Positions 195 through 18,700 of a stretch of DNA of 64,000 nt are shown here, piece after piece. This stretch comes from an uncultured Phascolarctobacterium sp. (GTDB lineage Bacteria; Bacillota; Negativicutes; Acidaminococcales; Acidaminococcaceae): positions 124,001-188,000 of the forward strand of contig CASDXO010000007.1 in assembly GCA_949285135.1 (NCBI GenBank), in the 5' to 3' direction. Position numbers and translations under genes: made by a program. How positions within the stretch are numbered: the stretch's first letter is position 1; the number at the start of each line of letters is the position of its first letter. The notes beneath the pieces are model-generated. The model was given only the letters and a program-made list of their open reading frames with translations, had not been told where the DNA came from and ran no database searches.

Positions 195-962
195 TTATTT
201 ATCTTCACCAAACCAGGTTTTATAAATTTTATCAAATGCACCGTTCTTTTTCAGTTCTGCCATGGCTTTATTAATTTCAGCAGCCAGCTTGGCATTGTCT
301 TTTTTTACTGCAATGCCATAATCTTCTGCTTCCATTTTCTCGCCTACAGTCTTGGCAGATTCGCTGCCGCCCTGCTGCAGATAGTAAGCCACAACCGGAG
401 CATCGTTAATAACTGCATCAGCACCGCCGTTTTTCAGTTCCAGAGAAGCCTCACTCTGAGTATTAAAAGCAGTAACCTGAGCTCCCGGAACAGAACGGGA
501 TTTCTTTTCACCGGTAGTACCAATCTGGCAGGCAATACGTTTGCCTTCAAGGTCTTTCAGTGTCTTAATATCATTATTATCCTTATTTACCATAATGATC
601 AGCCCGGAAGTATAATACGGATCAGAAAACTCTACAACCTTTTTGCGTTCATCAGTAATGCTCATACCGGCAATGGCAACATCAATGTTACCGGCATTCA
701 GAGCAGGAATCAGAGCGTCAAAACCCATGTTCTGTACTTCTACCTTATAGCCCATCTGTTTGCCTATGGCACGGATTAAGTCAATATCAAAACCGGTAAA
801 CTCCTTGCTGCCTTCTTTCTGAAATTCAAACGGCGCAAAGCTCGGTTCAGTGCCAACACGCAGCACTTTTTCTGCTGCTTCCTTCTTTTCGCCGCCACAA
901 CCCGCCAACAGCATCGCGCAGGCAGTCATTACCATCATTACCAACATCAGAATTTTTTTCAT
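195..962 (-). CDS. Amino-acid ABC transporter substrate-binding lipoprotein (copy 1)
   Basis: A 255-residue extracytoplasmic solute-binding protein of family 3 (SBP_bac_3), which delivers a polar amino acid to an ABC permease. A lipoprotein signal peptide ends in the lipobox LAGC near residue 22. The mature part has family hallmarks: VGTEPSFAPFEF near the start, GFDIDLIRAI, and AGMSITDERKK. The ribosome site GAGGGGGATTAGTA precedes the ATG. It is about three-quarters identical by eye to the gene immediately upstream, so the two look like a tandem duplication. The permease fragment follows 52 bp downstream. Substrate specificity is not readable from sequence. Confidence 0.92.
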   Translation of the reverse strand: MKKILMLVMMVMTACAMLLAGCGGEKKEAAEKVLRVGTEPSFAPFEFQKEGSKEFTGFDIDLIRAIGKQMGYKVEVQNMGFDALIPALNAGNIDVAIAGMSITDERKKVVEFSDPYYTSGLIIMVNKDNNDIKTLKDLEGKRIACQIGTTGEKKSRSVPGAQVTAFNTQSEASLELKNGGADAVINDAPVVAYYLQQGGSESAKTVGEKMEAEDYGIAVKKDNAKLAAEINKAMAELKKNGAFDKIYKTWFGEDK

Positions 963-1004
963 TACTAATCCCCCTCATTACTATAAATCTTATAAAATAA
1001 ATAC

Positions 1005-1037
1005 GGAGCACAGGCTATTTCCAGCGCATTGTGCCCC
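1005..1037 (-). promoter_or_regulatory. Intercistronic hairpin after binding-protein gene
   Basis: Eight-base-pair inverted repeat (GGAGCACA with TGTGCCCC, one G-U pair in RNA) in the 94-bp gap between the two binding-protein genes. There is no clear U-run, so it is more likely a partial terminator or mRNA-stabilising hairpin than a full terminator. Confidence 0.5.
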
Positions 1038-1056
1038 GCAAGCAAAACCCGAAAAA

Positions 1057-1827
1057 TTATTTTTTCACTTCGCCAAACCAAGTTTTATAGATTTTATCAT
1101 ATTCACCGTTCTTTTTCAGTTCGGCAAGAGCTTTGTTAATATCAGCAGCCAGTTTGTCATTACCTTTCTTAACAGCAAGACCATACTGTTCAGCTTCCAT
1201 AACTTCGCCAACTGTCTTGGCAGTCTTATTGCCGCCCTGGGCCAGATAATAACCTACAACTGGACTGTCGTTGATAACTGCGTCTACACCATGATTGGTA
1301 AGCTCCATAGCAGCTTCTGTATTGGTATTAAATGCTGTTACCTTCGCACCGGCAACACTTCTTGCTTTGCCTTCGCCGGTAGTACCGATCTGGCAGGCAA
1401 TGCGTTTGCCTTCAAGATCTTTCAGACTCTTGATATCATTATTATCTTTATTCACCATGATAATCAGGCCGGAAGTATAATACGGTTCAGAGAAAGTAAC
1501 TGCCTGTTTACGTTCATCAGTAATGCTCATACCTGCAGCTACAACATCAATATTGCCTGCATTTAAAGCCGGAATCAAAGCATCGAAACCCATATTCTGG
1601 ATTTCAACCTTATAACCCATCTGTTTGCCTACAGCACGAATAAGATCCATATCGAAGCCATCGTATTCCTTGCTGCCTTCCTTTTGGAATTCAAACGGAG
1701 CAAAGGTAGGTTCCGTACCAACACGCAGCACTTTTTCAGCTGCTTCCTTCTTATCTCCGCCACAGCCTGCAACCAGCAGCGCAGCTGCTGCCATCAAAGC
1801 CATGATCATAATTAGTATTCTTTTCAC
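1057..1827 (-). CDS. Amino-acid ABC transporter substrate-binding lipoprotein (copy 2)
   Basis: A 256-residue SBP_bac_3 lipoprotein, first gene of the operon. The start is taken as the GTG at 1827: GAAGGGAG lies 9 nt upstream, and the protein then begins with a normal signal peptide and a VAGC lipobox. Starting further upstream would add a charged stretch before the signal peptide. The mature protein shares nearly all motifs with copy 1 (VGTEPTFAPFEF, GFDMDLIRAV, AGMSITDERKQ, YKTWFGE at the end). Two paralogues sharing one permease could widen substrate range; this is inference. Confidence 0.92.
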   Translation of the reverse strand: MKRILIMIMALMAAAALLVAGCGGDKKEAAEKVLRVGTEPTFAPFEFQKEGSKEYDGFDMDLIRAVGKQMGYKVEIQNMGFDALIPALNAGNIDVVAAGMSITDERKQAVTFSEPYYTSGLIIMVNKDNNDIKSLKDLEGKRIACQIGTTGEGKARSVAGAKVTAFNTNTEAAMELTNHGVDAVINDSPVVGYYLAQGGNKTAKTVGEVMEAEQYGLAVKKGNDKLAADINKALAELKKNGEYDKIYKTWFGEVKK

Positions 1828-1881
1828 TTCATACAGCTCCCTTCTTTTTTTAAACACTAATCCTGCATAAAATTTACATTT

Positions 1882-1953: not shown

Positions 1954-2163
1954 ATGCAGTCCAGCTGACCTGGTCTTCGCCCCCACACTCGCCTGCTGGG
2001 AGGTTCGCTCCTAAGCTTACGCGCTCCCCACTACTGCTCCTCTCGCTTTTTGCGGCAGGACTTACTCCTAAGCTGCACCGTGCTCACAGCCACTTTGGGC
2101 TGCTTACGTGGATCGTTTTGCCTGCAACTGGCATCGACTTGCAACCACAGACCTGAACTGCAT
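1954..2163 (-). ncRNA. Candidate independent structured RNA, about 210 nt
   Basis: A clearly more GC-rich block inside an A/T-rich intergenic gap of over 400 bp. On the minus strand its two ends pair as an 11-bp stem (ATGCAGTTCAG with CTGGACTGCAT), continued inward by GGTCT with AGACC. Inside are further small hairpins such as CAGCC/GGCTG, AGGA/TCCT and CGC-AAAAA-GCG, and two copies of AGCTTAGGAG. A sigma-A promoter (see 2169-2197) predicts transcription starting at the first base of the closing stem. There is no convincing open frame. I could not match it to a known family. 6S RNA shares the size and paired ends, but the fold looks multi-branched rather than rod-like, and no clear U-run terminator follows. 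Confidence 0.55.
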
Positions 2164-2168
2164 TCCTA

Positions 2169-2197
2169 ATTATATTCCTTTAGAAATTTTTGCGCAA
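2169..2197 (-). promoter_or_regulatory. Promoter of the candidate RNA
   Basis: Minus-strand TTGCGC and TATAAT with a 17-nt spacer. The predicted start is near 2162-2163, exactly where the closing stem of the RNA element begins. This coincidence is the main reason for calling the element a separate gene. Confidence 0.55.
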
Positions 2198-2264: not shown

Positions 2265-2888
2265 ATGATTGCCATACCTCAATGTCTTGATTTCGCTGAT
2301 GATGATCTGACCAGAGAAATCTGCGACTTTTACCTGAAAATTTTAGAACGCAAAAACAAAGACCTGTATCTGCACAGTCAGCAGGTTGCCAACTACTCAG
2401 CCAGTACGGCCGCAAAATTAGGCTTGCCGTATTCTGAAGTTGCAACTGTTAAAACGGCTGCTTTGCTTCACGATATTGGTCATCTTTCTGTGCCCAATTT
2501 AATCCTGTATAAAGTTCCTTTCCTTACCACCCGGGAGCTTTCCATTTACAAACGTCACTGCATCGCTGGTGCAAGTATGCTGGAAAACATTCCTGAATTC
2601 AACAGCATCATCGAAATCATTAAAGCACATCATGAACAGTGGGATGGAAAAGGATATCCCAAACGTCTGAAAGGACAGAATATTCCTTTGGGGGCACGCA
2701 TTATCGCCGTTGCCAATTATTACGACAGATTTCTTAACCCCTGCACGCAGCACTGGCAGAAAACTCACGATGACGCTATTATCGAACTGAAAAATAAAGC
2801 AGGACTTGATTTCGACCCTGCGGTAGTCAAAGCTTTTATTGAATCTGTTGTCCCTCAATCTCCCGTACAATTAAAAAATAAGCTCTGA
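2265..2888 (+). CDS. Stand-alone HD-GYP domain protein
   Basis: A 207-residue cytoplasmic protein that is essentially one HD-GYP domain, the metal-dependent phosphohydrolase type that degrades cyclic di-GMP. The HD motif appears as LLHDIGH in the first half, followed by a conserved HHE-x-WDGKGYP segment carrying the GYP signature, then GARIIAVANYYDR. Both hallmark motifs are intact, so activity is plausible. There is no attached receiver, PAS or membrane sensor domain, which is unusual because most HD-GYP proteins have one. No GGDEF or EAL gene is present in the window. The ATG at 2265 was preferred over an upstream TTG because the promoter overlaps the latter. Confidence 0.85.
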   Translation: MIAIPQCLDFADDDLTREICDFYLKILERKNKDLYLHSQQVANYSASTAAKLGLPYSEVATVKTAALLHDIGHLSVPNLILYKVPFLTTRELSIYKRHCIAGASMLENIPEFNSIIEIIKAHHEQWDGKGYPKRLKGQNIPLGARIIAVANYYDRFLNPCTQHWQKTHDDAIIELKNKAGLDFDPAVVKAFIESVVPQSPVQLKNKL

Positions 2889-2996: not shown

Positions 2997-3072
2997 TGGT
3001 GGGCGCTAACGGGATCGAACCGCTGACATTCTGCTTGTAAGGCAGACGCTCTCCCAGCTGAGCTAAGCGCCC
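2997..3072 (-). tRNA. tRNA-Val (UAC)
   Basis: A 76-nt cloverleaf starting GGGCGCTTAGCTCAGC and ending GCGCCCACCA with the CCA encoded. The anticodon loop CTTACAA gives anticodon UAC, reading GUA and other valine codons. The T-loop GGTTCGATCC is intact. Confidence 0.96.
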
Positions 3073-3075
3073 GAA

Positions 3076-3150
3076 TGGTGACCGGTGGGGGAATCGAACC
3101 CCCGATACCGCCGTGAAAGGGCGGTGTCTTAACCGCTTGACCAACCGGCC
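3076..3150 (-). tRNA. tRNA-Glu (UUC)
   Basis: A 75-nt cloverleaf from GGCCGGTTGGTCAAGC to CCGGTCACCA with CCA encoded. The anticodon loop carries UUC for glutamate. It sits 3 nt from tRNA-Val in the same cluster. Confidence 0.96.
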
Positions 3151-3153
3151 AGG

Positions 3154-3229
3154 TGGCTCCCCGAGTAGGACTCGAACCTACGACGCCCTGATTAACAGTC
3201 AGGTGTTCTACCGGCTGAACTATCGGGGA
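3154..3229 (-). tRNA. tRNA-Asn (GUU)
   Basis: A 76-nt cloverleaf from TCCCCGATAGTTCAGC to CGGGGAGCCA with CCA encoded. The anticodon loop CTGTTAA gives GUU for asparagine. It is the first of the three-gene tRNA cluster Asn-Glu-Val. Confidence 0.96.
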
Positions 3230-16719: not shown

Positions 16720-18399
16720 TTATCTTTCTGCTCTGTTGATAGCACAAATAATACCCAGTAAAGCTGCTACGTTAATATTAGCATGGATACCGGCACCGAA
16801 AATATGTCCTCCGTCCGGTTTCTTCAGTTCAATGTAGCAGATGCCCAGTGCATCACTGCCACGGGAAATGGCATGTTCATGGTAATTGACAAATTCATAA
16901 CCAACAATACCTACACCATTCAACGCCTGGAAGAAAGAGTCGATAGGGCCGTTACCAATACCGACGATAGTCTTTTCCCCATCCGGTGTCATAAGAGCAC
17001 CCTCAAAACGGCTGTGCACGCTGCCGTCCGCATCATTAAGCTCCGTAAAGCGGTGACGCAGCAGGCGGTATCTTCCTGTAAAATCAATATATTCACGCTG
17101 GAACAGTGCTACAATCTGCTCACTGCTGAGCTCATCGCCATAATCATCGGCCGCTGCCTTAACGATATTGCCAAACTCCGGATGCATCTCCTTGGGAAGA
17201 TTATACCCCATAGCATGCTGTAGTACATATGCTGCACCACCCTTGCCAGACTGACTGTTGATACGGATTACAGGCTCATATTCCCTGTGCAGGTCTGCCG
17301 GATTAATTGGCAGATAGGGCACTTCCCACCACGGAGTACCGCTGTTTTCCATATATTCATAGCCTTTCCTGATAGCATCCTGATGAGAGCCGGAAAAAGC
17401 AGTGAAAGCAAGCTCACCTGCATACGGCTGACGCTCCGGCACTTTCATGCGGGTGCAGCTTTCATAAATCTTCTTGATATCCAGAATATTGGAAAAATCA
17501 AGCTGTGGATCAATACCCTGAGTAAACATGTTCAACGCTACCGTAACAATATCAAGGTTGCCGGTACGTTCACCATTGCCAAACAAAGTACCTTCAATAC
17601 GCTCCGCACCTGCCAAGAGCGCCAGCTCTGCCGAAGCTACGCCGGTGCCGCGGTCGTTGTGAGGATGGATACTGATAATAGCCGCTTCTCTGTTATGCAT
17701 ATGTCTGCAGAAGTATTCAATCTGATCCGCATAGGTATTTGGCGTAGACATTTCTACTGTAGAGGGCAGATTGAGGATAATCGGGTTTTCTTTAGTTGCA
17801 CCCATTGCCTCCATGACTGCTTCACAAATACGTATGGAAAAATCAATTTCTGTTCCAGTAAAACTTTCCGGAGAATACTCATATCTGATATTCATGCCGC
17901 TGCGGGCAGTTTCTTCTTCCGTCAGCTGGCGTATCAGTTTTGCTCCATTGACAGCGATGTCGATGATGCCGTCCATATCCTTGCCAAATACTACTTTACG
18001 CTGCAATGTTGATGTTGAATTATAAAAATGAATAATTACGTTTTTGGCACCACGCACAGCATCAAAGGTCTTGCGAATCAGTTCTTCTCTGGCCTGCACC
18101 AGCACCTGTACGGTAACGTCATCGGGAATATGGCCGTCTTCAATCAAAGTACGCAAAATCTCATATTCTGTTTCCGAAGCCGATGGAAAACCAACTTCGA
18201 TTTCCTTAAAGCCGCAGCTGACAAGAGTATGGAAAAATTTTAATTTTTCTTCAATACCCATGGGCGTAACCAGAGCCTGATTACCATCACGCAAATCAAC
18301 GCTGCACCAGATGGGCGCTTTTTCAATAACTTTTTCCGGCCACTGACGGTCAGGCAATTTTACGGGATTAAAAGGAACATACTGTTTAGCAAATTTCAT
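16720..18399 (-). CDS. leuA: 2-isopropylmalate synthase
   Basis: A 559-residue enzyme condensing acetyl-CoA and 2-oxoisovalerate, the first committed step of leucine synthesis. The catalytic barrel opens with SVDLRDGNQALVTPM and includes the metal ligands in SIHPHNDRGTGVA and GTLFGNGERTGNLD. The C-terminal third forms the leucine-binding regulatory domain, so this is the long, feedback-inhibited form close to that of actinobacteria and some Firmicutes. The ATG at 18399 has CGGAGG upstream. Control is by the T-box leader directly upstream. The other leu genes are not in the window. Confidence 0.95.
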   Translation of the reverse strand: MKFAKQYVPFNPVKLPDRQWPEKVIEKAPIWCSVDLRDGNQALVTPMGIEEKLKFFHTLVSCGFKEIEVGFPSASETEYEILRTLIEDGHIPDDVTVQVLVQAREELIRKTFDAVRGAKNVIIHFYNSTSTLQRKVVFGKDMDGIIDIAVNGAKLIRQLTEEETARSGMNIRYEYSPESFTGTEIDFSIRICEAVMEAMGATKENPIILNLPSTVEMSTPNTYADQIEYFCRHMHNREAAIISIHPHNDRGTGVASAELALLAGAERIEGTLFGNGERTGNLDIVTVALNMFTQGIDPQLDFSNILDIKKIYESCTRMKVPERQPYAGELAFTAFSGSHQDAIRKGYEYMENSGTPWWEVPYLPINPADLHREYEPVIRINSQSGKGGAAYVLQHAMGYNLPKEMHPEFGNIVKAAADDYGDELSSEQIVALFQREYIDFTGRYRLLRHRFTELNDADGSVHSRFEGALMTPDGEKTIVGIGNGPIDSFFQALNGVGIVGYEFVNYHEHAISRGSDALGICYIELKKPDGGHIFGAGIHANINVAALLGIICAINRAER

Positions 18400-18419
18400 A
18401 AGCTTCCTCCGTATCTGGG

Positions 18420-18700
18420 GCAATAAAAAACCCGCCCCAATATTTTTCATATTAGGGGCGGGGAATAAACCACGCTGTACCACCCTATTTCAGCTGCCGC
18501 ACAGCAGCCCTCTCAACCTCCAACAAGGCTTAAGCCAGTAACGCGGCCAGACGTTCTGCCCTACCTGTCAGGCAGACGACTCAGGGATGAGTATACATAT
18601 GTACTCCGGCGTTGCCTTGCACCACCCGGCAACTCTCTGCAGCCTTCTGAACATATCTTCTTCCCTTCAATGTCTTTCAGGTGAATAAATTCAGTTGATG
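18420..18700 (-). promoter_or_regulatory. Leucine T-box riboswitch leader of leuA
   Basis: A tRNA-sensing leader. The T-box sequence GGGTGGTACAGCGTGG lies at 18470-18485; its TGGT bulge matches the A73-CCA end of tRNA-Leu. The terminator CCCCGCCCC/GGGGCGGG plus T-run follows at about 18422-18463. In Stem I the specifier loop reads ACTCATCCCTGAG, placing a CTC leucine codon at 18589-18591, next to the conserved AGAGAG and GGTGCAAGG segments. When uncharged tRNA-Leu binds, the antiterminator would form and leuA would be transcribed. Confidence 0.93.

What the first reader, a model, noticed from the sequence alone, without database searches (positions are those of the whole stretch)
1954..2197. 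Candidate new structured RNA gene with its own promoter
Seen directly: an unusually GC-rich 210-nt block lies between divergent A/T-rich regions. Its ends pair as an 11-bp stem on the minus strand, and a TTGCGC-17 nt-TATAAT promoter predicts a start at the first base of that stem. The neighbouring genes have their own promoters (1882-1910 and 2205-2233), so it belongs to neither. Two AGCTTAGGAG copies sit in the interior. Inference: an independent ncRNA of unknown type. 6S RNA has comparable size and paired ends, but a rod-shaped fold did not come out by hand.
Basis: partly seen in the sequence, partly recalled or inferred. Interest (0 to 1): 0.75.

Follow-up and report, generated by a model that had tools for sequence, protein, structure and literature searches.

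The report
A known RNA: raiA/ModT, not new
The block is a clear member of an already described bacterial RNA family (raiA RNA, also called ModT), here in a gut Phascolarctobacterium relative that lacks both spore genes and the cyclic-di-GMP enzymes through which this RNA was linked to its effects elsewhere.

Summary
Window 1956-2161, minus strand, is a full-length raiA RNA (Rfam RF03072; ModT in C. difficile): 199.6 bits against a gathering score of 101.3, model positions 1-209. It is single copy in its genome. It is found in 56 of 59 family genomes above the cut-off; the three misses or partials lie at contig ends. P1, P5, P8 and the pk-1 pairing covary strongly (22 pairs with two-sided changes, 94.7% of cells paired). 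A TTGC-type promoter just upstream is kept in 29 of 36 relatives. Literature describes an abundant, trans-acting RNA that sets the exit from exponential growth; its molecular activity is unknown. Two things make this copy mildly interesting. Its genome has no Spo0A, GGDEF, EAL or PilZ domain, so the sporulation and c-di-GMP effects reported in clostridia cannot be its universal job. And in this family the RNA sits divergently beside an HD-GYP-like gene in 54 of 54 assessable genomes, which may be mere synteny.

The parts
1956..2161 (-). raiA RNA (RF03072, ModT), full length, 5' end at 2161
   Evidence: cmscan 199.6 bits, E 2.8e-51 (window), model 1-209 of 209; covariation on 30 Negativicutes sequences
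2150..2163 (-). 5' strand of closing helix P1 (11 uninterrupted bp counting two extra A-U/U-A pairs outside the Rfam model)
   Evidence: sequence; P1 pairs have two-sided changes at 9 of 12 positions
1954..1967 (-). 3' strand of closing helix P1
   Evidence: as above
2123..2129 (-). P3 loop AGTTGCA, 5' side of pseudoknot pk-1
   Evidence: pairs 33-39 with 85-91 of the RNA, 98.6% of cells paired, two pairs with two-sided changes; pk-1 described in PMC11751092
2071..2077 (-). pk-loop TGCAGCT, 3' side of pseudoknot pk-1; overlaps first AGCTTAGGAG copy
2065..2074 (-). AGCTTAGGAG copy 1 (pk-loop)
   Evidence: alignment
2008..2017 (-). AGCTTAGGAG copy 2 (P8 3' side and following internal loop)
   Evidence: alignment
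2169..2174 (-). -10 element TATAAT of the raiA RNA promoter
   Evidence: exact TATAAT in 32 of 36 relatives near the same place
2192..2197 (-). -35 element TTGCGC of the raiA RNA promoter
   Evidence: TTGC with a -10 at 16-18 nt spacing in 29 of 36 relatives
2265..2888 (+). HD-GYP-like metal-dependent phosphohydrolase gene, divergent neighbour
   Evidence: Pfam HD_5 2.1e-38; PDB matches to 3'3'-cGAMP and c-di-GMP phosphodiesterases; adjacent in 54 of 57 family genomes with the RNA
1057..1828 (-). downstream gene: amino-acid-type solute-binding protein, first gene of an ABC transporter operon that leads to the raiA protein gene outside the window
   Evidence: Pfam SBP_bac_3; synteny
195..962 (-). 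second solute-binding protein of the same operon
   Evidence: Pfam SBP_bac_3

Best explanation
This is the single raiA RNA (ModT) gene of a Phascolarctobacterium-like bacterium (Acidaminococcaceae, Negativicutes). It is transcribed on the minus strand from its own housekeeping-type promoter and folds into the compact, pseudoknot-centred structure of the family. It most likely acts in trans as an abundant, stable RNA, probably within a ribonucleoprotein, that helps time the change from exponential growth to stationary phase. Identity, structure and promoter rest on results here. The trans action, abundance and growth-phase role are carried over from experiments in clostridia. The molecular activity (RNP scaffold, ribozyme or ligand sensor) is not known for any member; an RNP or RNA-processing role is my guess. 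In this host the role cannot run through sporulation or through GGDEF-made c-di-GMP, because those genes were not found.
For: Rfam hit at almost twice the gathering score over the whole model. Single copy. Present in 37 of 41 relatives (36 above the cut-off) and 57 of 59 family genomes (56 above it), none of 14 control genomes. Covariation: 22 of 54 pairs with two-sided changes, 167 such cells against a shuffled mean of 48, 94.7% of cells paired against 30-46% for slid structures. Promoter conserved. Downstream ABC operon then raiA protein gene on the same strand, as in much of the class. Trans complementation, abundance, sigma-A promoter and growth-phase phenotype in C. difficile: PMC11706538. 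3D structure with pk-1/pk-2 for the C. acetobutylicum member: PMC11751092.
Against: No transcript data for this organism. No intrinsic terminator was found after the RNA in this locus, so the 3' end may need processing or read-through. Function is inferred from distant relatives whose known downstream targets (Spo0A-dependent sporulation, the GGDEF protein DccA) are absent here.
Confidence: 0.9

Rival explanations
1. It is a cis-acting leader (riboswitch-like, as Rfam's type label 'Cis-reg; riboswitch' implies) that controls the amino-acid ABC transporter and raiA protein genes downstream on the same strand.
For: The transporter operon follows the RNA on the same strand in 28 of 34 assessable Negativicutes; in several relatives (G004, G006, G012, G018) the gene starts about 31-72 nt after the RNA with no terminator and no clear promoter between.
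Against: Here the transporter gene has its own TTGCTG-17-TATAAT promoter between it and the RNA. In other relatives the RNA is followed by an intrinsic terminator (G002, G003, G005, G010, G014, G027). The downstream gene differs (zinc-ribbon gene in the spore-forming families; PTS antiterminator in C. difficile, PMC11706538). Mutants are complemented in trans in two species (PMC11706538).
Confidence: 0.07
2. It is a 6S-like RNA that binds RNA polymerase.
Against: No 6S match with Rfam even at E up to 10; pseudoknotted multi-branch fold with strong covariation instead of a rod.
Confidence: 0.01
3. A GC-rich spacer or mobile repeat whose pairing is chance.
For: Single-sequence folding energy is no better than shuffles (z -0.12).
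Against: Conserved in essentially every family genome with heavy compensatory change; single copy.
Confidence: 0.01

Closest known systems
raiA RNA (Rfam RF03072), ModT of Clostridioides difficile (PMC11706538)
   Same: Full-length match, modelled helices, pk-1, own sigma-A type promoter, raised G+C against the surroundings.
   Different: Host lacks Spo0A, GGDEF, EAL and PilZ; downstream genes are an amino-acid ABC transporter operon and then the raiA protein gene (a PTS antiterminator in C. difficile); comFC not adjacent in this genome; divergent neighbour is an HD-GYP-like gene; no intrinsic terminator seen; P6 hairpin is short.
raiA RNA of Clostridium acetobutylicum (cryo-EM, PMC11751092, PDB 9CXF)
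   Same: Same family architecture, including pk-1 between the P3 loop and the P5-P6 joining loop.
   Different: No structure of this member; the variable stems and loops were not compared in 3D.
6S RNA
   Same: Length near 200 nt, paired ends, housekeeping promoter.
   Different: No sequence or structure match; not a rod.

Membership tests
raiA RNA / ModT (RF03072) | Covariance-model score above the curated gathering score over the full model | tested here: met
   199.6 bits against 101.3, positions 1-209
raiA RNA / ModT (RF03072) | Conserved secondary structure supported by covariation among homologues | tested here: met
   22 pairs with two-sided changes, 94.7% paired on a sequence-only MAFFT alignment
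raiA RNA / ModT (RF03072) | Pseudoknot pk-1 (P3 loop with pk-loop) | tested here: met
   7 pairs, 98.6% of cells paired, two with two-sided changes
raiA RNA / ModT (RF03072) | Pseudoknot pk-2 and non-canonical tertiary contacts | not tested
   pk-2 has only 2 pairs; no 3D model was made
raiA RNA / ModT (RF03072) | Own housekeeping (sigma-A type) promoter | tested here: met
   TTGC plus -10 element at 16-18 nt spacing in 29 of 36 relatives; sequence evidence only
raiA RNA / ModT (RF03072) | Usual neighbours comFC (upstream) and raiA protein gene (downstream) | tested here: inconclusive
   raiA gene 3.3 kb past the RNA's 3' end on the same strand; comFC on another contig here but near the RNA in several relatives. 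Not a strict requirement
raiA RNA / ModT (RF03072) | Abundant trans-acting transcript affecting growth transition | not testable with these tools
   needs RNA-seq and genetics
Riboswitch | Expression platform controlling the adjacent gene in cis | tested here: inconclusive
   no terminator found; separate downstream promoter; ribosome-site sequestration not tested
6S RNA | Match to 6S covariance models | tested here: not met
   no hit up to E 10

The most novel reading that the evidence does not exclude
In Acidaminococcaceae ModT and the divergent HD-GYP-like phosphohydrolase form a functional pair: ModT works with, or is controlled by, a signal that this enzyme breaks down, in cells that have lost GGDEF-made c-di-GMP altogether. 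The signal would have to be another nucleotide, and ModT's ancestral role would be separable from sporulation and c-di-GMP.
Probability: 0.12. Interest if true: 0.6.

Novelty: already known. Interest (0 to 1): 0.25.

Why it matters
The RNA family is known but its molecular activity is not. This host is a natural test case: a compact, non-sporulating genome with no detected GGDEF, EAL or PilZ domain still keeps a full-length, high-scoring copy. In the family, 21 of 22 good-quality genomes without a detectable GGDEF domain have the RNA; in the remaining one the contig ends where the RNA would lie. So the sporulation and c-di-GMP effects seen in clostridia are likely downstream branches, and work on such organisms could expose the core function.

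Tried and rejected
6S RNA and other Rfam families: no match. Single-sequence folding: energy no better than shuffles (z -0.12), so it neither supports nor refutes structure. The AGCTTAGGAG repeat as a functional repeat: the two copies belong to different conserved elements and agree fully only in this sequence. Cis-regulation of the transporter: see rivals. Literature on this RNA in Negativicutes: nothing held; the C. acetobutylicum genetics paper cited by others was looked for by DOI and is not held, so its claims are taken from PMC11706538 and PMC11751092. HD gene near the RNA outside the family: in Pelosinus and other Sporomusaceae-like genomes the relatives of the HD gene do not lie beside the RNA, so the pairing is specific to Acidaminococcaceae.

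Full report
Observation. The block is as described: GC 0.52-0.65 between AT-rich flanks, ends that pair over 11 bp on the minus strand, and TTGCGC-17-TATAAT whose -10 element ends 7 nt before 2161. The promoter alone would not stand out, since the generic scan misses it. It gains weight from relatives: TTGC with a -10 element at 16-18 nt spacing occurs upstream of the RNA in 29 of 36 genomes, and exact TATAAT in 32 of 36.

Identity. A scan with all Rfam families gives one hit over the block: RF03072, raiA RNA, minus strand 1956-2161, model positions 1-209 of 209, 199.6 bits against a gathering score of 101.3. The genome holds one copy. Among 41 genomes of the class (this one included) 37 have it, 36 above the cut-off. 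In the family 57 of 59 have a match, 56 above the cut-off. The three others (G011, G061, and the partial G062) lose it where the contig ends next to the HD gene that neighbours it elsewhere. None of 14 control genomes has it.

Structure. On a sequence-only alignment of 30 Negativicutes copies the Rfam structure, transferred through this copy, keeps a standard pair in 94.7% of cells. 22 of 54 pairs have two-sided changes, with 167 such cells against 48 in shuffles, and sliding the partner strand drops pairing to 30-46%. P1 carries nine two-sided pairs. The Rfam helix of columns 33-39 with 95-101 corresponds to the pk-1 interaction of the cryo-EM structure (PMC11751092) and also covaries. Single-sequence folding is uninformative.

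Organism. The adjacent HD gene product is 95% identical to one in an uncultured Phascolarctobacterium assembly, and further matches are Phascolarctobacterium, Succiniclasticum and Acidaminococcus. So this is Acidaminococcaceae.

Surroundings. Downstream on the same strand lie two amino-acid-type solute-binding proteins, a permease, an ATPase and then the raiA protein gene, just outside the window's left end. The transporter follows the RNA in 28 of 34 assessable genomes and raiA in 25 of 36; in the spore-forming families a zinc-ribbon gene comes first. comFC, a usual upstream neighbour (74% in the survey cited by PMC11706538), is near the RNA in several relatives but is on another contig here.

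HD neighbour. Divergent from the RNA is an HD_5/HD-GYP-like gene. The H...HD...H...HHE residues expected to bind metal are kept, and the Lys of HDxGK is replaced by His here and by other residues in relatives (the motif reading is from general knowledge of HD-GYP proteins). It lies beside the RNA in 54 of 57 family genomes with the RNA. In the three others (G056, G059, G067) the contig ends within about 160 bases of the RNA's 5' side, so there is no real exception. The gene on the other side of HD changes between genera (YhcH, ComFC or others), so the pair is kept longer than its surroundings. Whether this means a functional link or a shared divergent promoter region that is hard to break is open.

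Function. Published work on C. difficile shows an abundant, very stable, trans-acting RNA from a sigma-A promoter. Its loss delays entry into stationary phase, lowers sporulation through raised c-di-GMP and changes tRNA levels; protein binding in vivo is suggested (PMC11706538). The paper itself argues from non-spore-formers that the RNA serves a more general process. The present genome sharpens that: no Spo0A, no GGDEF, no EAL, no PilZ, one HD-GYP-like gene, yet a full-length, high-scoring RNA. In the family 22 of 38 good-quality genomes lack a detectable GGDEF domain; 37 of the same 38 have the RNA, the single miss (G061) being at a contig end. I therefore regard c-di-GMP and sporulation as lineage-specific branches downstream of the core activity. 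This is an inference from gene absence; very divergent domains could be missed.

3' end. Several relatives have an intrinsic terminator right after P1 (G002, G003, G005, G010, G014, G027) and others a U-rich tract directly after P1. This locus has neither, so the 3' end is expected from processing or from termination further on.

Verdict. Real, functional-looking and already classified. Interest is low as a discovery and moderate as a natural c-di-GMP-free, spore-free host for an RNA whose molecular activity is still unknown.

Noticed in passing
window 2265-2888 (+): HD-GYP-like gene, the only HD_5 gene found in a genome without GGDEF or EAL, always divergent from the raiA RNA in Acidaminococcaceae; its substrate is unclear.
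   Followed up: partly
window 18451-18679 (-): T-box leader (109.6 bits) upstream of an isopropylmalate-synthase-like ORF at 16720-18483 (named by eye, not searched); ordinary.
   Followed up: partly
window 195-1857 (-): Two tandem paralogous solute-binding proteins served by one permease and one ATPase; the number of binding-protein copies varies between one and three in relatives.
   Followed up: partly
L067 (G035), RNA at contig C40:118506-118610: A raiA RNA with about 100 nt of its interior missing but P1, both ends and promoter kept, in a genome with Spo0A: a natural deletion or an assembly error.
   Followed up: partly
G008, G009, G011, G056, G059, G061, G062, G067: Contigs often end at or beside the raiA RNA, perhaps because its similar sequence in related species breaks metagenome assemblies, as rRNA genes do.
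   Followed up: no
window 3000-3229 (-): Three tRNA genes in a cluster; ordinary.
   Followed up: no
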